A stretch of DNA of 64,000 bases, taken from the NCBI GenBank assembly GCA_913058495.1, contig CAJXQC010000003.1, positions 62,001 to 126,000 of the forward strand, in the 5' to 3' direction. Under the pieces are notes generated by a model, which did no database searches, had not been told where the DNA came from, and saw only the letters and a program-made list of their open reading frames with translations. The DNA comes from an uncultured Balneola sp. Its GTDB lineage: Bacteria; Bacteroidota; Rhodothermia; Balneolales; Balneolaceae. A program made the position numbers and the translations under genes. How positions within the stretch are numbered: position 1 is the first letter of the stretch; each line of letters starts with the position of its first letter. Positions 43,772 through 64,000 of the stretch are shown in pieces.

Positions 43772-43852
43772 ATATATTATTTAATTTCTTCTGATAACTT
43801 AAAAAATGTGAATACAAGTTCCCTCATAAAAAAAGAAGCGTTAACTTACAGT

Positions 43853-44611
43853 ATGTTAACAAAAAGGATTATCCCTTGTCTGGATATAAAAGAAGGCAGA
43901 ACAGTTAAAGGAGTGAACTTTGAAGGGTTGAGAGACGCAGGTGATCCTGTTGAACTTGCCAGGAGATATTCTGATGAAGGAGCTGATGAACTGGTTTTCC
44001 TGGATATCACTGCGACTCTGGAAAAAAGAAGTACATTGATAGAGCTTGTAAAGAGAATTTCGACAGAGATCAATATTCCATTTACTGTTGGTGGCGGTAT
44101 AAAATCAGTAGAAGAAATTGAAGAATTGCTGAAAGCAGGGGCAGATAAAGTATCACTGAATAGTAGCATAGTAAAAGATCCGGAATTGATAAACAGAGCT
44201 TCAGAAGCTTTTGGAGCGCAAGCAATAGTTGCTGCAGTTGATGCGAAGCAGGTAAGTGATCATTGGGATGTATTTGTCAAAGGCGGAACGGAGAATACCG
44301 GAAAAGATGCTCTTAAATGGATGATGGAAGTGGAAGAAAGAGGTGCTGGCGAAATTCTACTTACAAGCATGGATCGAGATGGAACTAAAAAAGGCTTCGA
44401 TCTGGAGCTGCTGTGCAAGGTAAACGAGTGCGTTAGCATACCTGTAATAGCAAGTGGGGGAGCAGGAACCATACAGCACTGCATTGATGCAATATTGATT
44501 TCCAATGTGGATGCTGTTCTCGCAGCAAGCATATTTCACTTTAAAGAGATAGAAATTTCAGAACTTAAGAGAGCTTTAACTGCTGAAGGAATACCAATCA
44601 GGCCAAGTTAA
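43853..44611 (+). CDS. hisF: imidazole glycerol phosphate synthase, cyclase subunit
   Basis: From the ATG at 43853 the protein is 252 residues, the usual HisF length. A GTG at 43808 would add 15 non-conserved residues. HisF takes ammonia from HisH and PRFAR to make IGP and AICAR. It opens [20 protein letters not shown] with the catalytic Asp11, and has the second catalytic Asp in VAAVDAKQ. Both phosphate-binding loops (GGGI and ASGGAG) are there. It lies about 15 kb from hisH and hisA, so its partner subunit is encoded at another locus. Confidence 0.96.
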
Positions 44612-44700: not shown

Positions 44701-44879
44701 AAATACAGAGCAAAATAGATAGCTGTCAATTCATTGCAAAAAAGCTCTTTTATGCTCTTTTAGCCTAATTTTTTAAGTAAGGACAATGCCTCTTCATTTT
44801 CGAGATATTTGAAATAGTGCAAAAAAATCGTCTTTTTTGTTGTTGTCCTTTCTTAAAAACAATTAGTGCTATCTGTAAA

Positions 44880-47800
44880 ATGTCTAATAAATTTAATTAC
44901 TGTTCTGAAGAGCATTCGGCTTGTGGTGTAGGTTTTATTACAAGCAGGAAGAAAGAGTATTCACATCGTCATTTAATAGAAGGTTTGCACGCATTAAGAT
45001 GTGTAGAGCATCGCGGAGCTTGTTCAGCAGATGGAATTACCGGTGATGGAGCCGGAATAATGACCGATATTCCTTTTGATATGCTTGGCTATGAAAAAGA
45101 TACTGTAGCCGTTGCAACATTATTTTTGGCAAACGATCAGGATAAACAGAGAATAGCACTACATATTTTTGAAAATACATTCAGCTTTTTTGGGTTGGAT
45201 ATTTTGAACTACAGAGATGTTCCTGTAAATCATTCTGTATTGGGTAAGGATGCTTCAGCTAATGTGCCGGTAATTAAGCAGGCAATTATTAAGCGACCGG
45301 AAAGAAGTAAAACCAATTTATCGTTTGACAAAAGATTATATAATGCCAAACAGTTAACCAGATCAAAGCTTTCGGAATCTTCATTGATTCAAAGTCTGCA
45401 TTTTGCTTCATTATCAGCCCAAACGATCGTTTATAAAGCATTAACAAAGGCAGAAGCTTTAGATGAGTTCTATCCGGATTTGAAAAATGAAGAATTTACT
45501 ACACGATTTTGTCTTTTCCACAGGCGGTTTAGTACAAATACGAAAACATCATGGGACAAAATTCAGCCATTAAGACTTATTGGGCATAATGGAGAGATCA
45601 ATACAATAGCCGGGAACCGATCATGGGCTAAATCAAGAGAAAAGATGATTGGTGCAGAGCGAAATGAAATACTTACAAGATCTAATATTAGTGATTCAGG
45701 TAGCTTAAATGAAATGGTTGAGGCTTTGCGATATCGAAGTAGTATTCCGAATGTAGAAGATATTTTGGCGATAATGATGCCACCTGCAACAGAAGCCAAT
45801 CAGTTTTATACATTTTGGAGCAGAGCGATGGAGCCTTGGGACGGCCCTGCTTTTGTTAGTTACGCTAATGGATATACAATTGGAGCACGACTTGATAGAA
45901 ATGGTTTTCGTCCATGCAGATGGGTACGTACTAAAGATCACTTTTATCTTTCATCAGAAGCGGGAACCTTTCATATCAGGGAGGATGAGATAGAAGGCAA
46001 GGGAACTCTTTATGCTGGAAGGGGAGTTACTGTGGATCTTAGCTCGGGCGAAGTATTATTCAGAGATCCAAGCCATTCGAAAGAGAACCATGATGCTAAC
46101 TTTGATTCAAGATTAAAATCTATTCCCAAAATCATTAGGGATATTGGAACACGATACGAAGAAAAATTAGCCACTTTTAGCTATACCGATGAAGAGCTTT
46201 CTAAAGTAATATATCCAATGGCGATGACAGGTAAAGAACCTGTTGGGTCTATGGGAGATACAGCTCGTCTTGCAGTACTTTCAACTGAACCCCGATCCTT
46301 TTTTGATTTCTTTTACCAAAATTTTTCACAGGTAACCAATCCTCCTCTGGATTATATAAGAGAAAAGATTGTAACTGATCTGACTGTTCACTTAGGAAAA
46401 AAGCCTAACATTTTTGAGCCCAAAGAACTTATTCCTGCAGCTCCTGCATATGAATTAAAGAGTCCTTTTTTGAGTTTAGCACAGATGGAATTTTTAAGAG
46501 ATTTGATTATCAAATATGATCCATCAGACCGTGTTGTTCCATTCGAAATCGAAACAACTTTCAAAAGAAGTCATGGATCGGTTGGTTTTAAATCCAGACT
46601 CAACGCTATCGGAGAAGAAGCAATAAAAGCGGTAAGAAGTGGCTATTCTATTATAATTTTGAGTGACAGAAAATCAGATTATGATAACCCGGGTATACCT
46701 TCACTATTAACTTTACGGAGAGTTGTTAATGCCCTTAATGATGAGGGTCTTAAGTTAAATGCATCGGTGGTTATGGACACAGGAGAAGTAAAAAGTACAC
46801 ATCATGCATCTGCTTTAATTGGTTTTGGAGCTCAGGCAGTATGTCCTTATTTGGCTTTGGATGTTGCAAGGAATGCTGTTCATCGCTCTCTCAAAGATCT
46901 GGATTCAGATACTAAGGAAAGAAATCTGCTTAAAGCGTTTGATACCGGTTTACTGAAAATAATGGCAAAGTCCGGGATATCGGTTGTTAGAAGCTATCAA
47001 AGTGCGAAACTGTATTCGATATTAGGACTAGGTCCTAAAGTTGTAAATGAGTATTTCCCACAAGTTCAAAGTCCGATCGGAGGACTGGAAATCAATCAGA
47101 TCGCTGAAAGAGTATTGGCTAGAACAGGGGGTAAGTCACAGGAAGAGCAGGAAAAATATAAACCCATAAAGAGCTATCAATATAAAGAGCATGCGCGTGG
47201 TAAAATGGGTGAGAAGCACTCAATGACCAATTCACGATCTAAAGTTATTCACGACTTAGTTCGGGATAAAAAACTTGATCTAACGGATATGTCATTGTTT
47301 GATGAATATCTTAAACTGGGACTAAATGATGAACCTGTTGCATTAAGACATCTTTTTAAACCTATATATTCTCCACAAAAGTTGCCGCTGGATAAAGTTC
47401 GTCCTGTATCTCATATCCTGAATAAATTCGGGTCGGGTGCGATGTCTTTTGGAGCAATAAGCGCTGAATCTCAGAGAGACATATTTCTCGCAATGAAGGA
47501 AATAGGAGGGAGGTGTAACAGTGGTGAAGGAGGGGAAAACCCATATTACTTCACTGAAGGAATTTCTGCTTCAGTAAAACAAATTGCTTCGGGGAGATTT
47601 GGTGTTACTGCAGAGTATCTAGTTTCAGGAGAAGAGGTCCAGATAAAAGTATGTCAGGGAGCTAAACCCGGTGAGGGAGGACAGCTTATGGGCTTAAAAG
47701 TAAATGAAGATATAGCCAGAGCCCGATACGCAAATCCCGGTTTTGATTTGATATCTCCTCCACCATTGCATGATATTTATAGCATAGAAGACCTGAAACA

Positions 47801-49304
47801 ATTAATTCATGATCTAAAGCAACTGCATCCTGAGGGAAAAGTTAGTGTTAAATTAGTTTCAGGAGTTAATATCGGAACTATAGCAGTTGGAGTAGCAAAA
47901 GCGGGCGCTGACATTATACAGGTTTCCGGTGGGGAAGGAGGGACAGGAGCTGCTTCTTTAAGTTCGATGAAACATGCAGGTCTGCCTTGGGAAATAGGCT
48001 TGCTGGAAGTGCATCAATCGTTGATAGAGAATGACTTGAGAGATCATGTGATTTTAAGAACTGATGGTGGGCTCTCAAGTGGAAAGGATATTATTTTAGC
48101 TTCTATTCTTGGAGCAGAAGAATTCGATTTCGGTAAGTTGCTTTTGATTGCTCAAGGTTGTGTAATGGCGAGAATTTGCGAAAAAAACACATGTCCAACT
48201 GGTATTGCAACTCATGATCCCAAATTCAAAGCCAAATACAAAGGCAATAAAGACCATATTGTTGATACGCTAACGTATTTAGCAGAAGATGTACGAAGAG
48301 AACTGGCAAGCATCGGAATAGAATCTCTTCAGCAGATCATGGGAGATACCAGCTTACTGTCAATTGATGATAAGCATCAACCACTCATTAATGAACTGGG
48401 ATTAGATCTAAGTTTCTTTACCTCCGCTCCGGAATATAATAAAACAGAGACTCTGAGATCACTATCAGACTCTGTAAGTCCATTTAACACCAAGATCATT
48501 CATGAACTGGAGGAAAAAATAAACAAGAATGAACCTATTGATGAAGAATACAAGATTTTTAATACAGATCGTTCTGCTTTAGCTACACTCTTCGGACTTA
48601 TAGCAGATAAAGAAAGTAAAAGCAGATTAGCATCCATAAAAGAAGCCGACACTACAGTTCAATCATATAATAATGAGATCAATTTAATTTTCAGAGGTAG
48701 TGCAGGACAAAGTTTTGGAGTATTTCAAACCGAAGGAGTCAACATTCGATTAATTGGTGAAGCTAACGATTCAGTTTGTAAATCGATGAGTGGTGGAAAA
48801 ACAGTAATTGTACCACCTGAAAATGCAAAGTATAAACCGGAAGAGAACGCAATAATCGGGAATTGTGCACTGTATGGAGCTACTAGTGGAAAATTCTATG
48901 TATATGGACAAGCCGGTGATCGGTTCGCTGTACGAAATAGTGGTGCTACAGCTGTTGTAGAGGGAACAGGGTTGCATGCCTGTGAGTATATGACAAATGG
49001 TACTGTTGTTATCCTTGGAGATACTTCAGATAATGTAGGAGCGGGGATGACTGGAGGTGAGTTGTTTCTTTATGAAGATCCTAAAACCCGGGTCAATACC
49101 GAGTATATAGTAAAAGCTGAAATGTCAAATGCAGATAGTGAGAAGCTCAGGAAAATAATAGAAGATTATTTCAAAGAAACTAATTCTTCCAAAGCAGGAT
49201 ATATATTATCAGATTGGGAAAAGGTATCTAATAATTTTAATAAGTTTATACCCCATTCAATGGTTGATAAGCACCTTGTATCAAAAGCAGAACCCGCTAA
49301 TTAG
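44880..49304 (+). CDS. gltB: glutamate synthase large subunit
   Basis: From the ATG at 44880 the product is 1474 residues. The GTG 63 bases upstream gives an implausible Cys-rich extension. The N-terminal nucleophile of the glutaminase domain is Cys15 in EEHSACGVGFI, after a 14-residue propeptide. The central domain, the FMN/2-oxoglutarate domain (GAMSFGAISAESQ, VSGGEGGTGAASLSS, RTDGGLSSG) and the 3Fe-4S cysteines (GCVMARICEKNTCPTGIATH) follow, then the C-terminal beta-helix. It transfers the glutamine amide to 2-oxoglutarate. No gltD small subunit is adjacent; the downstream gene is on the other strand. The electron donor may be ferredoxin or a distant GltD. Confidence 0.95.
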   Translation: MSNKFNYCSEEHSACGVGFITSRKKEYSHRHLIEGLHALRCVEHRGACSADGITGDGAGIMTDIPFDMLGYEKDTVAVATLFLANDQDKQRIALHIFENTFSFFGLDILNYRDVPVNHSVLGKDASANVPVIKQAIIKRPERSKTNLSFDKRLYNAKQLTRSKLSESSLIQSLHFASLSAQTIVYKALTKAEALDEFYPDLKNEEFTTRFCLFHRRFSTNTKTSWDKIQPLRLIGHNGEINTIAGNRSWAKSREKMIGAERNEILTRSNISDSGSLNEMVEALRYRSSIPNVEDILAIMMPPATEANQFYTFWSRAMEPWDGPAFVSYANGYTIGARLDRNGFRPCRWVRTKDHFYLSSEAGTFHIREDEIEGKGTLYAGRGVTVDLSSGEVLFRDPSHSKENHDANFDSRLKSIPKIIRDIGTRYEEKLATFSYTDEELSKVIYPMAMTGKEPVGSMGDTARLAVLSTEPRSFFDFFYQNFSQVTNPPLDYIREKIVTDLTVHLGKKPNIFEPKELIPAAPAYELKSPFLSLAQMEFLRDLIIKYDPSDRVVPFEIETTFKRSHGSVGFKSRLNAIGEEAIKAVRSGYSIIILSDRKSDYDNPGIPSLLTLRRVVNALNDEGLKLNASVVMDTGEVKSTHHASALIGFGAQAVCPYLALDVARNAVHRSLKDLDSDTKERNLLKAFDTGLLKIMAKSGISVVRSYQSAKLYSILGLGPKVVNEYFPQVQSPIGGLEINQIAERVLARTGGKSQEEQEKYKPIKSYQYKEHARGKMGEKHSMTNSRSKVIHDLVRDKKLDLTDMSLFDEYLKLGLNDEPVALRHLFKPIYSPQKLPLDKVRPVSHILNKFGSGAMSFGAISAESQRDIFLAMKEIGGRCNSGEGGENPYYFTEGISASVKQIASGRFGVTAEYLVSGEEVQIKVCQGAKPGEGGQLMGLKVNEDIARARYANPGFDLISPPPLHDIYSIEDLKQLIHDLKQLHPEGKVSVKLVSGVNIGTIAVGVAKAGADIIQVSGGEGGTGAASLSSMKHAGLPWEIGLLEVHQSLIENDLRDHVILRTDGGLSSGKDIILASILGAEEFDFGKLLLIAQGCVMARICEKNTCPTGIATHDPKFKAKYKGNKDHIVDTLTYLAEDVRRELASIGIESLQQIMGDTSLLSIDDKHQPLINELGLDLSFFTSAPEYNKTETLRSLSDSVSPFNTKIIHELEEKINKNEPIDEEYKIFNTDRSALATLFGLIADKESKSRLASIKEADTTVQSYNNEINLIFRGSAGQSFGVFQTEGVNIRLIGEANDSVCKSMSGGKTVIVPPENAKYKPEENAIIGNCALYGATSGKFYVYGQAGDRFAVRNSGATAVVEGTGLHACEYMTNGTVVILGDTSDNVGAGMTGGELFLYEDPKTRVNTEYIVKAEMSNADSEKLRKIIEDYFKETNSSKAGYILSDWEKVSNNFNKFIPHSMVDKHLVSKAEPAN

Positions 49305-59086: not shown

Positions 59087-59120
59087 AAAGCCTGTACATT
59101 TAGTTGTGCAGGCTTTTCAT
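59087..59120. terminator. terminator at the barrel gene-hisA convergent ends
   Basis: AAAGCCTGTACA and TGTGCAGGCTTT form a 12-bp stem (one G-U pair) with a six-base loop, followed by TTTTCATTT in the rightward direction. It overlaps the last codons of hisA and ends the rightward barrel gene; leftward function is weaker (no clear T run). Confidence 0.65.
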
Positions 59121-59816
59121 TTGCTCTAAAGTTATATGATGCTCATAAAAAGCTTTCCCAACTACCACAGCATCAATATCAGCTTTATCGAGCTGAACCA
59201 GATCTTCCAGATCAGAAACTCCACCGGAAGCAATTAACTTTATTTCGGGAAAAGCTTTCTTTAATGATATATACAATTCTGTATTTGGTCCCGATAAGGT
59301 TCCATCTTTAGAAATATCTGTACAAAGTACTTCCTGAAGTCCTTCATCTATCATTCTTTCCAGAAAATGAAAAGTATCTTCTTCAGCCGTTTCCAGCCAA
59401 CCGGAATAAGCAATTTTTCCATCTTTAAGATCCATTCCCAGGATCATTTGCTCCGGATATTTTTTAAGTGCTGCAATCCAGTCAGCCTCATTTTTGATCG
59501 CCATAGAACTGCATATCACTTTTGATAGTCCCGCATCCAAAAGAAATTCAACATCGGCTAACTTTCGTATTCCTCCACCTGTTTGAACTGAAATGCCCAG
59601 ATCAGAAATAATGTTTTTTATGTATGGGAGATTGACAAATTTACCTTCTTTGGCTCCGTTAAGATCCACAATGTGTATATGATCAAACCCGGCTTCTTTA
59701 AATTGAGTAGCAAAATTTAAAGGGTCTTTGTCATATATAGTTGCTTCTTCGTATTTACCTTTGTGAAGACGGACAACTTGTCCATTTAGCAAGTCGATTG
59801 CCGGAATTACTTTCAT
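59100..59816 (-). CDS. hisA: ProFAR isomerase
   Basis: HisA (238 residues) opens the ring of ProFAR to PRFAR, a TIM-barrel step in histidine synthesis. KVIPAIDLLNGQVVRLHKG contains the catalytic Asp near residue 8, and ILGMDLKDGKIAYSGW holds the second Asp. Phosphate-binding blocks QTGGGIRKL and LIASGGVSDL are as in the family. It sits downstream of hisH by 17 bases on the same strand. The HisH partner hisF is elsewhere, at 43.9 kb. Confidence 0.96.
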   Translation of the reverse strand: MKVIPAIDLLNGQVVRLHKGKYEEATIYDKDPLNFATQFKEAGFDHIHIVDLNGAKEGKFVNLPYIKNIISDLGISVQTGGGIRKLADVEFLLDAGLSKVICSSMAIKNEADWIAALKKYPEQMILGMDLKDGKIAYSGWLETAEEDTFHFLERMIDEGLQEVLCTDISKDGTLSGPNTELYISLKKAFPEIKLIASGGVSDLEDLVQLDKADIDAVVVGKAFYEHHITLEQMKSLHN

Positions 59817-59833: not shown

Positions 59834-60436
59834 TTACTTTTTTTGTGAATAAACCAGATCTAAAAAATTCTGTAGAACTTTAGATCCAACGGAGCCTGAT
59901 TTCTCGGGATGAAACTGTACTCCCATAAAATTGTCTTTTGCCACAACTGCTGAAAACGGAGTGATATAATTACCTTCTGCGATAGTGTATTCAGAAACAG
60001 GAGCATAAAAACTGTGTACGAAATATAAATGCTTCTTGTCTTCCAGGCCATGTGTAAGATGGTGCTGCTTTAATGCTTTGATAGTATTCCATCCCATGTG
60101 AGGAACTTTATCAATTTCTGAATCGAATTTTTTAAGAAATCCGGGAATAATTCCAAGCCCTTTGGTATCACCCTCAGTAGAGCCCTCATACATTAATTGC
60201 ATCCCCACACAGATTCCTAAAACGGGTTTGCTTGTGGTTTTAAGCCATTCATCAATTCCAAGTTCTTTCAGAGAATCCATCGCAGTTTTAGCATGTCCTA
60301 CACCCGGGAAAATGACGGCTTTTGCACTTTCAAGTTCCTGGGCTGACTGAGCAAAATAATAATGAGCTCCCAGCCTGTCTAAGGCATTAGAAACGGAAGC
60401 AATGTTGCCTGCTTTGTACTTGATGATAGCAATCAT
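59834..60436 (-). CDS. hisH: imidazole glycerol phosphate synthase, glutaminase subunit
   Basis: HisH (200 residues) releases ammonia from glutamine for HisF. The Cys-His-Glu triad is visible: Cys in VLGICVGMQLMYEGS, His and Glu in VQFHPEKSGSVG. The oxyanion-strand PGVGHAKTAM near residue 45 also fits. It follows hisB by three bases and precedes hisA, so the three leftward genes are an operon. Its partner hisF is about 15 kb away. Confidence 0.96.
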   Translation of the reverse strand: MIAIIKYKAGNIASVSNALDRLGAHYYFAQSAQELESAKAVIFPGVGHAKTAMDSLKELGIDEWLKTTSKPVLGICVGMQLMYEGSTEGDTKGLGIIPGFLKKFDSEIDKVPHMGWNTIKALKQHHLTHGLEDKKHLYFVHSFYAPVSEYTIAEGNYITPFSAVVAKDNFMGVQFHPEKSGSVGSKVLQNFLDLVYSQKK

Positions 60437-60439
60437 AAA

Positions 60440-61327
60440 TTAAAGAGAACCTTTAGAGCTGGGTATTTGGTTTTTAATTCGCTCGTTTTGTTCAACAGCC
60501 GCCTTCAAAGCGCGGGCAAAACCTTTAAAACAAGCCTCAATTTTGTGGTGATCATTATCACCGGTACAACTAACATGAAGAGTTGCTTTCAAGTTCATTG
60601 CCAGGCTATAAAAAAAGTGTTCTAACATTTCGGTTGGGAAATCTCCTACATATTCACGCTTCACCGGTACATCAAAAACCAAATAAGGCCTGCTTGAAAG
60701 ATCGATCGCTACCGTAGCTTGAGCTTCGTCCATAGCCAATACAAAACCGTAACGTTCTATTCCTTTTTTATCTCCTAAAGCCTGAGTAATGGCATCACCA
60801 AGAGCAATGGCGACATCTTCTATAGTGTGATGTTCATCAATTTCCAGATCGCCTTTGCAGTAAATATCAAGATCTACCAGTCCGTGCCGTGCGATCTGTT
60901 CCAGCATGTGATCGAAAAACTTTAGTCCGGTATCAATGTTTGACTTTCCGGTGCCGTCCAGATTCAGATCCACCTTTATTTTGGTTTCTTTTGTTTCTCT
61001 TTTGATAGAGGCTGTTCTATTCGGTGATAAAAGTGCAGATACAACCTGTTTCCAATCTGATGAGCTTATTACTTCAGTGTTGGCTGCATCTCTTAAAACT
61101 AATTCGGAGTCTTTAACTCCAATGGAATAATCAGTTCTTTCGATTTCAGAAAAACCAATTCCTTCCTGTTCTAACAAACTTTTTTGATCTTCTGTAATCG
61201 CTGCTCCTGAAACCGAGATCGAGACTCCTGCATCAACTAAGCACTTTAATGAAGAAATAGCTTGCTGACGGAATAGGAATTGTTTATCAACAGGCAAAAG
61301 CGTATTACTTTCTATGGATACATTCAT
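60440..61327 (-). CDS. hisB: imidazoleglycerol-phosphate dehydratase with an extra N-terminal domain
   Basis: The C-terminal ~190 residues (from about 104) are a complete dehydratase: FFDHMLEQIARHG, DEHHTIEDVAIALG and NDHHKIEACFKGFARAL carry the metal-binding His/Glu residues. Single-domain HisB is about 195 residues; the 295 here leaves ~100 residues at the N-terminus. That region (IESNTLLPVDKQFLFRQQAI, LVDAGVSISVSGAAITEDQ) loosely follows the HAD phosphatase layout of bifunctional HisB but lacks the DxD nucleophile. So it makes imidazoleacetol phosphate only; histidinol-phosphate phosphatase must come from elsewhere. First gene of the hisBHA run. Confidence 0.92.
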   Translation of the reverse strand: MNVSIESNTLLPVDKQFLFRQQAISSLKCLVDAGVSISVSGAAITEDQKSLLEQEGIGFSEIERTDYSIGVKDSELVLRDAANTEVISSSDWKQVVSALLSPNRTASIKRETKETKIKVDLNLDGTGKSNIDTGLKFFDHMLEQIARHGLVDLDIYCKGDLEIDEHHTIEDVAIALGDAITQALGDKKGIERYGFVLAMDEAQATVAIDLSSRPYLVFDVPVKREYVGDFPTEMLEHFFYSLAMNLKATLHVSCTGDNDHHKIEACFKGFARALKAAVEQNERIKNQIPSSKGSL

Positions 61328-61406: not shown

Positions 61407-61814
61407 ATGAATTCAAAATTTAACATTCTGTTTTGGGTACTCAGAATCGTAGCAGCAGGAATTTTACTGCAAACGTTGTTTTTTAAATTTACCGGCGCTC
61501 CCGAAAGCATATACATTTTTGAAACCGTTGGTTTAGAGCCATTTGGCAGGTACGCTTCAGGGATCACAGAGTTAGTCGCTGCGATTTTTTTGTTGATACC
61601 AAGATTCAACTGGTTAGGCGCCTTACTTTCACTTGGAGTTATGAGTGGAGCCATTTTGAGCCATTTAACAGTTTTGGGAATTGAAGTCAAAGGCGACGGC
61701 GGATTACTCTTTGCACTGGCAATTGTAGTTTTTATCTGCTCTGCAATTCTATTGTACTTTAATAAAGAAAACATACCGGTCATAGGAGAAAGGTTTAAGA
61801 ATTCAGGATCTTAA
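61407..61814 (+). CDS. DoxX family membrane protein
   Basis: This 135-residue protein has four hydrophobic segments (near residues 7-25, 48-65, 73-88 and 100-120). FWVLRIVAAGILLQTLFFKFTGAPE opens with the DoxX pattern, and the loop RYASGITELVAAIFLLIP is typical. It lies inside the histidine region on the opposite strand, its 3' end overlapping that of hisC by 20 bases. DoxX members are linked to respiratory and thiol stress systems, but no partner is visible here. Confidence 0.85.
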   Translation: MNSKFNILFWVLRIVAAGILLQTLFFKFTGAPESIYIFETVGLEPFGRYASGITELVAAIFLLIPRFNWLGALLSLGVMSGAILSHLTVLGIEVKGDGGLLFALAIVVFICSAILLYFNKENIPVIGERFKNSGS

Positions 61815-62856
61815 TAAGAGCTTCCAAAAACCTATCATTTTCCTCGGCTGTACCAATAGTAACTCTGAGGCAATTTTCACAATGAGGTTCATTGCCTCTG
61901 TAGCGAACTATCACTCCGGAATCAGCTAGTTTTTTGTATACATTCAATGCATCATCGACTTTGAACAACAGAAAATTAGCATCAGATGGAAATACTTTTT
62001 CTACTTGAGCCAGATTTTCCAATTCTGCAACAATCCGTTTCTTTTCTGAATTAATGGATTCGATATTTTTTTGAACTGATCCCAAATTTTCAAACCCATT
62101 CAAAGCAGCTTGAGATGTAAGTTTATTTACATTATATGGAGCTTTAACCTTCATCATGTACTTGATGATCTCCGGGTTAGCGATTGCAATGCCCAAACGA
62201 ATTCCTGCCAATCCAAATGCTTTTGAAAGTGTTTGAAGAACCACAAGGTTCGGATAGTTTTTTACTTCATCAGCAAAACCGGCTTGCTCAGAAAAATCGA
62301 TATAAGCTTCATCTACTACTACCAAACCATCAAAGTTTTCCAGAAGATGGATTATATCATTCCGGTCCATATCGTTGGCTGTAGGATTATTGGGCGAGCA
62401 GACAAAGATCAGTTTGGTGAAATCCGTAACTCTGTTCAGTATTCGTTCAGTCTGAAGTTGAAAATCCGGAGTCAACAGCACCTCATCAACTTTTATATTG
62501 TTGATATTCGCTGATACTTTATACATGCCGTAGGTTGGTGGGTTGGTAATGACTTTATCTTTACCCGGACTGCAAAAGATTCTGAATAACAGATCTATTG
62601 CTTCATCACTTCCAACTCCTACAAACACATTTTCAGTATCTACTTTTCTGTAGTCAGCTATTACAGATCGTAACTTCTCCTGATAGGGCATAGGATAGCG
62701 ATTCAATTCCATATCGCTTTCTATGGGTGCTCCAAAACTGTTTTCATTGGCATCAAGAAGTATTCCTGAGTCAAAATCATCCCTTGCAGAACGATAGGGT
62801 TTTAAGTCACGGATATTTTCCCGAACTATTTTTTCTAAGTTGAATTTTTTATTCAT
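61795..62856 (-). CDS. hisC: histidinol-phosphate aminotransferase
   Basis: HisC (353 residues) is a fold-type I PLP enzyme turning imidazoleacetol phosphate and glutamate into histidinol phosphate. LLDANENSFGAP opens the protein. The PLP Lys is in TLSKAFGLAGIRLG, preceded by VVDEAYIDFS with the pyridine-N Asp. CLRVTIGT near the C-terminus has the carboxylate-binding Arg. It lies between hisB and hisD; the convergent DoxX gene (61407) breaks the his cluster, so hisC is probably not co-transcribed with hisB unless readthrough occurs. Confidence 0.96.
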   Translation of the reverse strand: MNKKFNLEKIVRENIRDLKPYRSARDDFDSGILLDANENSFGAPIESDMELNRYPMPYQEKLRSVIADYRKVDTENVFVGVGSDEAIDLLFRIFCSPGKDKVITNPPTYGMYKVSANINNIKVDEVLLTPDFQLQTERILNRVTDFTKLIFVCSPNNPTANDMDRNDIIHLLENFDGLVVVDEAYIDFSEQAGFADEVKNYPNLVVLQTLSKAFGLAGIRLGIAIANPEIIKYMMKVKAPYNVNKLTSQAALNGFENLGSVQKNIESINSEKKRIVAELENLAQVEKVFPSDANFLLFKVDDALNVYKKLADSGVIVRYRGNEPHCENCLRVTIGTAEENDRFLEALIKILNS

Positions 62857-63018: not shown

Positions 63019-64000
63019 CTATCCATCAGCTTTCTCCAGAGAATTCAATCTAATACTCACCGCATTTTTATGAGCTTGTAGTTCTTCAACTTCAGCAAGA
63101 GTTTCAACGGTTTTCCCGATGTTTCTCAAGCCTTCTTCGGTTAAAGTTTGCATGGTTATGGATTTTTGATAAGAACTCAGATTTACTCCACTATACATTT
63201 TTGCATATCCGTAAGTAGGTAAAGTGTGGTTGGTACCTGATGCATAATCTCCAACACTTTCGGGAGTCAGATTCCCTAAGAAAACCGATCCTGCATTGAC
63301 GATCTCATCTTTATAGTCTTCAGAATTTTCAACATTCAGGATCAAGTGTTCCGGAGCGTATTCATTGGAAAAAGAAATTGCCTGTTCAATGTTATCAACT
63401 TCTATAACAAAACTCTGATCAAGAGCTTGCTTAGCAATTTCTTTTCTTGGAAGTTCATTCAGCTGAGACTCTAACTCTGAATTGAATGAGTTCCTGTCGA
63501 AGTCGGGAGTTGAAACCAACACTACCTGACTGTCTTTTCCATGTTCGGCCTGAGAAAGAAGATCCGCAGCTACAAATGCTGGGTTAGCTTGTTTGTCTGC
63601 TATCACCAACACTTCTGAAGGTCCTGCAGGCATATCAATGCTGATCTGTGCATCGCTGTTTTGAAGGATCATTTTTGCGGCAGTCACATATTGGTTTCCT
63701 GGACCAAGAATTTTATCCACTTTTGGTACAGATTCCGTTCCCAATGCCAAAGCCGCAACCGCCTGAGCTCCACCTGCTTTAAGGATACAATTAACTTTAG
63801 CTTTTTGAGCGATATAAATGATCTCAGGTGCAATATTTCCATCTTTTTGAGGAGGTGTGGCTAATACAATCTGTTTACATCCGGCGATCATAGCAGGAAC
63901 TGCCAACATCATCGCAGAGGAAGGCAAAACTGCAGTTCCTCCGGGAACATATAATCCAACTCGTTGGATAGCTTTGGTAATTCTCGAACATTTTACTCCC
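63019..64000 (-). CDS. hisD: histidinol dehydrogenase, N-terminus cut by window edge
   Basis: The open frame reads back to the window edge and encodes about 327 C-terminal residues of HisD, which oxidises histidinol twice to histidine with [19 protein letters not shown] near the edge is the family signature, followed by [31 protein letters not shown] and [14 protein letters not shown]. The zinc-site block [20 protein letters not shown] and the late YAPEHLIL and [17 protein letters not shown] blocks are present. It is upstream of hisC, with a REP pair between them. Confidence 0.96.

What the first reader, a model, noticed from the sequence alone, without database searches (positions are those of the whole stretch)
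60440..61327. HisB with a ~100-residue N-terminal extension resembling an inactivated HAD domain
The dehydratase part is complete and starts near residue 104. The extension starts with VSIESNTLLP where bifunctional HisB has the DxDGT nucleophile loop, and continues with a helix and VDAGVSISVSGA that lines up with the second HAD motif (hydrophobic strand ending in Ser). Both catalytic Asp are missing. At ~100 residues it is too short for an intact phosphatase. It may be a remnant used for oligomer assembly or regulation, or an unrelated domain.
Basis: inference. Interest (0 to 1): 0.5.

Follow-up and report, generated by a model that had tools for sequence, protein, structure and literature searches.

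The report
HisB with a dead phosphatase domain
A histidine-making enzyme of Balneolales bacteria still carries the shrunken, dead remains of a second enzyme that it once contained, and a separate gene of another family has most likely taken over the lost step.

Summary
In detail: 60440-61327(-) encodes a 295-aa HisB with a complete dehydratase behind a roughly 104-residue N-terminal domain lacking HAD catalytic residues. A confident AlphaFold model from the window and 11 related sequences (pLDDT 90.8) aligns best with HAD proteins; E. coli HisB-N is second of 50 listed entries (Z 8.0). Profiles of 67 such extensions and 81 intact HisB phosphatase domains match (P 4.5e-7; none of 300 column or block shuffles scores as high). 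None of the 67 has a strand-end DxD[GST] loop or GDxxxD. The dead domain occurs in 52 of 58 related genomes. The own genome has no HAD-type and no above-cut-off PHP-type histidinol phosphatase, but has an IMPase-type HisN with published motif 5. Among sampled genomes, 68 of 70 with a dead domain have such a HisN; 18 of 19 with an intact one lack it. The domain is under purifying selection but evolves faster than the dehydratase. Del Duca et al. 2021 noted the domain, found no similarity to HisN and left its activity open. Its present job is not shown.

The parts
60440..61327 (-). hisB, 295 aa: degenerate HAD domain plus imidazoleglycerol-phosphate dehydratase
61016..61327 (-). residues 1-104, degenerate HAD (HisB-N type) domain
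   Evidence: AF2 model; profile match
61301..61324 (-). residues 2-9: strand 1 and former DxDGT nucleophile loop, now IESNT
61232..61261 (-). residues 23-32: helix 1, part of the block that matches intact HisB-N best
61208..61222 (-). residues 36-40: strand 2, equivalent of the motif II strand
61163..61192 (-). residues 46-55: helix 2 and Glu55 (Glu in 66 of 67; its counterpart is invariant in 25 of 25 intact domains)
61028..61054 (-). residues 92-100: C-terminal HAD helix with Trp92 (60 of 67; counterpart invariant in 25 of 25 intact domains)
60443..61015 (-). residues 105-295: dehydratase domain, complete
   Evidence: Pfam IGPD 2.1e-64 over residues 133-274, profile 1-144 of 144
59834..60436 (-). 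hisH (recognised from the translation, no model run)
59100..59816 (-). hisA (recognised from the translation; sub-threshold hit of the hisF model, 83.6 bits, fits its paralogue)
61795..62856 (-). hisC (recognised from the translation)
63019..63927 (-). hisD, as listed near the window end; true start not determined (recognised from the translation)
43808..44611 (+). hisF, apart from the cluster

Best explanation
HisB of this Balneolales bacterium descends from a bifunctional histidinol-phosphatase/dehydratase (hisNB). Its N-terminal HAD phosphatase domain lost the nucleophile loop, the Lys and GDxxxD motifs and roughly 60-100 residues. A folded core remains: strand 1, helix 1, strand 2, helix 2, the outer strands and the Trp helix next to the dehydratase. 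Histidinol phosphate is most likely hydrolysed instead by an IMPase-type HisN encoded elsewhere in the genome (contig C18). The dead core is probably kept as a structural piece of the dehydratase, helping folding or packing of its N-terminal side. Shown by computation: HAD ancestry, loss of catalytic residues, order-wide retention, purifying selection in the genus, presence of a HisN gene. Inferred: that HisN is the enzyme in use, and that the remnant is structural.
For: Model of residues 1-104 from the window and 11 related extensions only, pLDDT 90.8; the full-length model keeps the same elements (pLDDT 86.4, pTM 0.73). Structural second look: 2obb Z 9.2, HisB-N 2fpr Z 8.0 over 96 residues, GmhB 7.8; first aaRS at rank 34, Z 6.0 over 82 residues. 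hhalign of 67 extensions against 81 intact HisB-N domains: probability 92.6, P 4.5e-7; global P 1.4e-7; score 43.7 against a maximum of 21.6 in 150 column shuffles, 37.5 in 150 block shuffles and 13.8 reversed. The extension HMM scores 16 of 81 intact domains at 8 bits or more, against 1 of 2025 shuffles and 0 of 81 reversed at 5 or more. Three collinear blocks in L131 and L130. The dehydratase tree puts 50 Balneolales rows in one group (98*) inside a 96-row group (98*) with the bifunctional Bacteroidota HisBs. Strand-end DxD[GST] and GDxxxD: 0 of 67 each. HisN just over its cut-off in the own genome, motif 5 RTWGDAYGH and no Gly at the position that is Gly in SuhB, top PDB chain a histidinol-phosphatase. 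No TIGR01656 hit and no TIGR01856 hit over cut-off in the own genome. HisN goes with dead domains in 68 of 70 and is absent with intact ones in 18 of 19. dN/dS 0.18-0.34 for the extension in ten pairs of five congeners.
Against: A first profile comparison with few sequences (12 against 25) was not significant (probability 1.6, P 0.032). Foldseek's own top rows were class II aaRS, and no row passed E 0.001. On the whole model only 1 of 1000 chains reached Z 8, and the aligner warns that a best Z of 7-8 is common among models without a clear match. The HisN/HAD association rests on few independent contrasts: 2 on starred branches, in most random pairings 1 in favour, 0 against and 1 without difference. 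G219 has a dead domain and no strong HisN; G255 has both an intact domain and HisN. The HisN score of the own genome is only 1 bit over cut-off, and only 23 of 58 relatives pass it. No structural role was tested.
Confidence: 0.85

Rival explanations
1. The domain is an unrelated alpha/beta module, such as a class II aminoacyl-tRNA synthetase anticodon-binding-like domain, fused to HisB.
For: Foldseek's top rows are ThrRS, Gcn2 HisRS-like, GlyRS and ProRS chains, E from 1.1e-3; GlyRS and HisRS appear at Z 6.0 and 5.9.
Against: HAD rows lead with longer, tighter alignments (HisB-N 96 residues at 3.1 A against GlyRS 82 at 4.2 A). Profile comparison with 21 ThrRS/ProRS anticodon domains gives P 0.014, probability 3.2, against P 4.5e-7 for HisB-N. 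The dehydratase groups with the bifunctional lineage.
Confidence: 0.05
2. The remnant is a passenger: it has no function of its own and persists because most deletions would harm the fused dehydratase.
For: Extension dN is about 5-10 times that of the dehydratase within the genus. Family f3 tolerates low-complexity insertions, bringing the N-terminal part to as much as 217 aa; G045 has lost the domain, and in the HisC-HisB fusions of two genomes (L036; L039 = L155) a low-complexity linker stands in its place.
Against: dN/dS is 0.18-0.34, not near 1; 37 of 52 dead extensions are 103-107 aa long by first ATG and core positions stay conserved (Ile5, Leu52, Glu55, Trp92).
Confidence: 0.3
3. The domain has become a regulatory or scaffolding module, for example binding HisN, HisH or a phosphorylated intermediate.
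For: Purifying selection and order-wide retention. Glu55 and Trp92 are kept from the ancestral enzyme while catalytic residues are not.
Against: No partner, ligand or interface was tested; the pattern is equally explained by fold stability.
Confidence: 0.12
4. The shortened domain is still a phosphatase with relocated catalytic residues.
For: None beyond the HAD fold; Del Duca et al. 2021 left activity open.
Against: No strand-end DxD[GST] and no GDxxxD in any of 67; the region of the Lys motif falls in a gap. A separate HisN is present.
Confidence: 0.02

Closest known systems
Bifunctional HisB/hisNB of Bacteroidota and E. coli (PRK05446; HisB-N structure 2fpr)
   Same: Same domain order, HAD fold by model, same junction (Trp helix, then R-x-A, R-x-T-x-ET), dehydratase grouping with the bifunctional ones
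   Different: About 104 residues instead of 164-206 in the 81 intact domains used, no catalytic motifs, PRK05446 score under cut-off
Short N-terminal domain of Balneolota HisB reported by Del Duca et al. 2021 (PMC8305728; section 3.2.2 read whole; other passages)
   Same: By description the same domain in the same group
   Different: They found no sequence similarity to the HisN moiety, left activity unclear, and by that section queried HAD-, GmhB- and PHP-type phosphatases only; here HAD ancestry and an IMPase-type HisN candidate are shown
IMPase-type HisN (Kulis-Horn et al. 2017, PMC5516325; abstract and passages read)
   Same: The genome's TIGR02067 protein has motif 5 and no Gly at the position that is Gly in SuhB-like proteins
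   Different: In the passages read the only Bacteroidetes named with HisN orthologs are some Chitinophagaceae; 'Balneola' does not occur in the main text
Pseudophosphatases of the HAD superfamily (general knowledge, recalled)
   Same: HAD fold without the nucleophile
   Different: No listing pointed to such a case inside HisB in the searches

Membership tests
HAD phosphatase, HisB-N type | HAD Rossmann-like fold | tested here: met
   predicted model, pLDDT 90.8; HisB-N second of 50 listed entries at Z 8.0, with profile support
HAD phosphatase, HisB-N type | DxDGT nucleophile loop at the end of strand 1 | tested here: not met
   IESNT in the window; 0 of 67 with hydrophobic-DxD[GST]
HAD phosphatase, HisB-N type | motif II Ser/Thr | tested here: not met
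   equivalent column not conserved (residue 40: D 27, S 11 of 67)
HAD phosphatase, HisB-N type | Lys motif III and GDxxxD motif IV | tested here: not met
   Lys region falls in a gap of the alignment; GDxxxD 0 of 67, 81 of 81 in the intact set
Bifunctional HisB (PRK05446) | score over the curated cut-off of 443 bits | tested here: not met
   313.4 bits
Imidazoleglycerol-phosphate dehydratase | IGPD domain over cut-off | tested here: met
   Pfam 216.4 against 27; NF002111 276.5 against 231
Imidazoleglycerol-phosphate dehydratase | catalytic activity and 24-mer assembly (recalled) | not testable with these tools
   needs purified protein
IMPase-type HisN (gene outside the window) | TIGR02067 over cut-off of 275.15 | tested here: met
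   276.0 and 276.4 bits at G000:C18:19891-20604, only just over
IMPase-type HisN (gene outside the window) | HolPase motif 5 (Asp with aromatic residues), no Gly at position 219 | tested here: met
   RTWGDAYGHM and WDAAALL in the own gene; motif 5 and WDAAAL in 8 of 8 other strong hits read; the second IMPase of the genome has neither. The other motifs of the paper were not compared
IMPase-type HisN (gene outside the window) | histidinol-phosphatase activity | not testable with these tools
   complementation needed
Class II aaRS anticodon-binding domain | profile and fold similarity | tested here: inconclusive
   P 0.014, probability 3.2; Foldseek ranks it first, second look gives it lower Z than HAD

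The most novel reading that the evidence does not exclude
The dead HAD core is a retained pseudoenzyme module, shared by Balneolales and a second distant family (f25), whose present job is to steer assembly or control of the dehydratase or to dock the replacement phosphatase HisN, so that two functions of one pathway that were once fused stay physically linked after the catalytic swap.
Probability: 0.12. Interest if true: 0.65.

Novelty: new variant of a known kind. Interest (0 to 1): 0.45.

Why it matters
It answers a question left open in print: what the short N-terminal domain of Balneolota HisB is, and where the missing histidinol phosphatase may lie. It gives a series of natural stages of domain decay inside one fused enzyme (intact, dead but nearly full length, dead and shrunken, lost) with a candidate trigger, the presence of a non-homologous enzyme. 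It also warns annotators not to infer histidinol phosphatase from HisB length in this group.

Tried and rejected
Pfam and NCBIfam scans of residues 1-105 and sequence searches of the PDB gave nothing usable for the extension. The first hhalign with small alignments was not significant; deeper alignments were. Foldseek favoured class II aaRS; I tested that with an anticodon-domain profile from 21 of the 30 loci fetched and rejected it. L065 (a Bacteroidetes MAG) first looked like an intermediate of the Balneolales form, but its dehydratase lies among the bifunctional Bacteroidota rows, so I treat it as a separate decay. For f25 the direct HAD link is not significant (P 0.075; its HMM puts 1 of 81 intact domains at 5 bits or more, against 9 of 2025 shuffles); it is linked only through the Balneolales profile (P 3e-10). 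Whether f25 and Balneolales share one decay is open: the tree with both held together is not rejected (p 0.503). G022 and G027, with intact domains, fall outside the Balneolales rows, near bifunctional Bacteroidota HisBs, L131 on a long branch with L193, and carry compact his clusters, so transfer or mis-binning is possible. The rotation control showed that hmmsearch scores do not depend on block order, so collinearity rests. The 81 intact domains were chosen by a D.DGT motif and a length of 150-215, so that motif's frequency in them is by construction; the 67 extensions were unique, uncut rows with 90-140 aa before the dehydratase, so longer ones (most of family f3) are not in the profile. 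One of the 67 (L034) comes from a MAG titled only 'Bacteroidetes bacterium'. The HisN threshold (E 1e-65) was set after seeing a gap between 222 and 197 bits and lies below the curated cut-off. Eleven near-duplicate rows and rows under 150 aa were left out of the tree. dN/dS in two further sets was mostly saturated; the pairs that could be computed for the extension gave 0.33, 0.09 and 0.14.

Full report
What is there. The ORF at 60440-61327(-) encodes 295 aa. Residues 133-274 match Pfam IGPD at 216 bits and the monofunctional HisB models start at residues 99-106. Residues 1-105 scanned alone match no Pfam or NCBIfam family. The gene lies between hisH and hisC, with hisA and hisD beyond (names of H, A, C and D read from the translations). 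hisF is at 43808-44611 and a hisI domain on another contig. hisG and hisE were not searched for in this genome.

How widespread. Of 58 genomes in the relatives set, 57 had a HisB hit, one of them (G011) a 64-aa fragment. For the 56 whose loci I read, my script sorted 52 as a catalytically dead extension, 2 as an intact phosphatase domain, 1 as a HisC-HisB fusion and 1 as without extension; G011 and G023 were not read. By first ATG 37 of the 52 extensions are 103-107 aa; 11 are longer (up to 217 aa, mostly family f3), and in 4 the first ATG lies inside or beyond the extension, one of them (L029) also cut by the contig end. In the class draw, the other Rhodothermia mostly show short frames of about 200-240 aa, and a group of 620-830 aa; of six read, two are HisD-HisB fusions and one (L167) has an intact phosphatase domain. 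Many further Bacteroidota have frames of about 360-420 aa, and those read have an intact domain, except L065 and L193. A distant family, f25, has dead 94-109 aa extensions in 9 of the 14 loci read, none in 4, and 1 (L178) not resolved by its start.

What it is. AlphaFold on the window sequence with 11 related extensions gave pLDDT 90.8 and pTM 0.80, with order E-H-E-H-E-E-E-H. Foldseek ranked class II aaRS first with no row at E 0.001 or better. The DALI-like second look at the same 1000 chains listed 2obb (Z 9.2), HisB-N (8.0) and GmhB (7.8) first, and the first aaRS at rank 34 with Z 6.0. Such Z values are only slightly above the stated background, so the fold evidence alone is moderate. Sequence profiles carry more weight: 67 extensions against 81 intact domains give P 4.5e-7 locally and 1.4e-7 end to end; native score 43.7, reversed 13.8, best of 150 column shuffles 21.6 and of 150 block shuffles 37.5. 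Anticodon domains give P 0.014. The matching blocks are helix 1, helix 2 with EGI-F after it, and the Trp helix before the dehydratase, in the same order in L130 and L131. The dehydratase tree (103 rows, SH-aLRT only, drawn with a midpoint root) places 50 Balneolales rows in one group (98*) inside a 96-row group (98*) that holds 25 of the 26 intact HisBs; L130 and L131, the two intact ones of the same family, fall outside the 50.

What is lost and what is kept. No extension of 67 has hydrophobic-DxD[GST] or GDxxxD; 8 have a D.D string elsewhere in the first 30 residues. Conserved are Glu55 (66 of 67), Arg104 (66), Ile5 (60), Trp92 (60) and Leu52 (59). The counterparts of Glu55, Trp92 and Arg104 are invariant in 25 intact domains (equivalence). 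An Arg also stands at this place in HisBs without extension, so Arg104 probably belongs to the dehydratase (sequences). dN/dS over the ten pairs of five congeners is 0.18-0.34 for the extension and 0.02-0.09 for the dehydratase.

Who does the phosphatase step. The own genome has no TIGR01656 (HAD) hit and only two sub-threshold PHP hits, the better in a frame of 601 aa. It has one TIGR02067 HisN just above cut-off (276 against 275.15). Its top PDB match is a histidinol-phosphatase (5yht, 1.9e-38), level with a chain labelled inositol monophosphatase (5eq7, 2e-38). It carries RTWGDAYGH, which fits the motif 5 that Kulis-Horn et al. found essential, and no Gly at the position that is Gly in SuhB-like proteins; 8 of 8 further strong hits share both, and the second IMPase of the genome has neither. 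Across 105 sampled loci with a HisN result (of 108), dead domains go with HisN (E under 1e-65) in 68 of 70 and intact ones lack it in 18 of 19; loci without extension or with fusions are 14 with and 2 without HisN. The exceptions are G033 (76% complete, with a partial 145-bit hit), G219 and G255. The independent contrasts are too few for a test.

What is known. Del Duca et al. 2021 (section 3.2.2 read) saw the short domain in Balneolota and Melioribacter roseus, found no similarity to the HisN moiety, and queried HAD-, GmhB- and PHP-type phosphatases. Kulis-Horn et al. 2017 (abstract and passages) do not mention Balneola in the main text. The searches gave no listing that points to a degenerate phosphatase domain in HisB; apart from the two papers named I judged listings by title and abstract start only.

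Verdict. The extension is an inactivated, shrunken HisB phosphatase domain, order-wide and under selection, with its activity most likely replaced by an IMPase-type HisN. Whether it now stabilises, assembles or regulates the dehydratase, or is a passenger, is undecided.

Noticed in passing
window 61407-61814 (+): A DoxX-family gene lies antiparallel between hisC and hisB.
   Followed up: partly
window 43808-44611 and 44817-49304 (+): hisF stands apart from the his cluster, directly before a 1495-aa glutamate synthase gene.
   Followed up: partly
L036, L039 (same protein as L155), L187: HisC-HisB fusions; in L036 and L039 a low-complexity linker stands where the HAD remnant would be.
   Followed up: partly
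L164, L165: Two genomes of the same class outside the order encode HisD-HisB fusions of about 630 aa.
   Followed up: partly
L144, L152: Family f3 extensions carry long low-complexity insertions (for example a GQ run in L152), up to 217 aa in all.
   Followed up: no
L193 (G219): A nearly full-length HAD domain with DGEET and GHGDWT in place of the motifs, in a genome without a strong HisN hit; its histidinol phosphatase is unknown.
   Followed up: partly
L222 (G022), L223 (G027): Two same-family genomes carry compact his gene clusters with intact hisNB and lack the strong HisN; possible transfer or mis-binning.
   Followed up: partly
G011:C8:99026-99211: HisB hit reduced to a 64-aa open frame in a genome whose genus mate G029 has a HisC-HisB fusion.
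   Followed up: no
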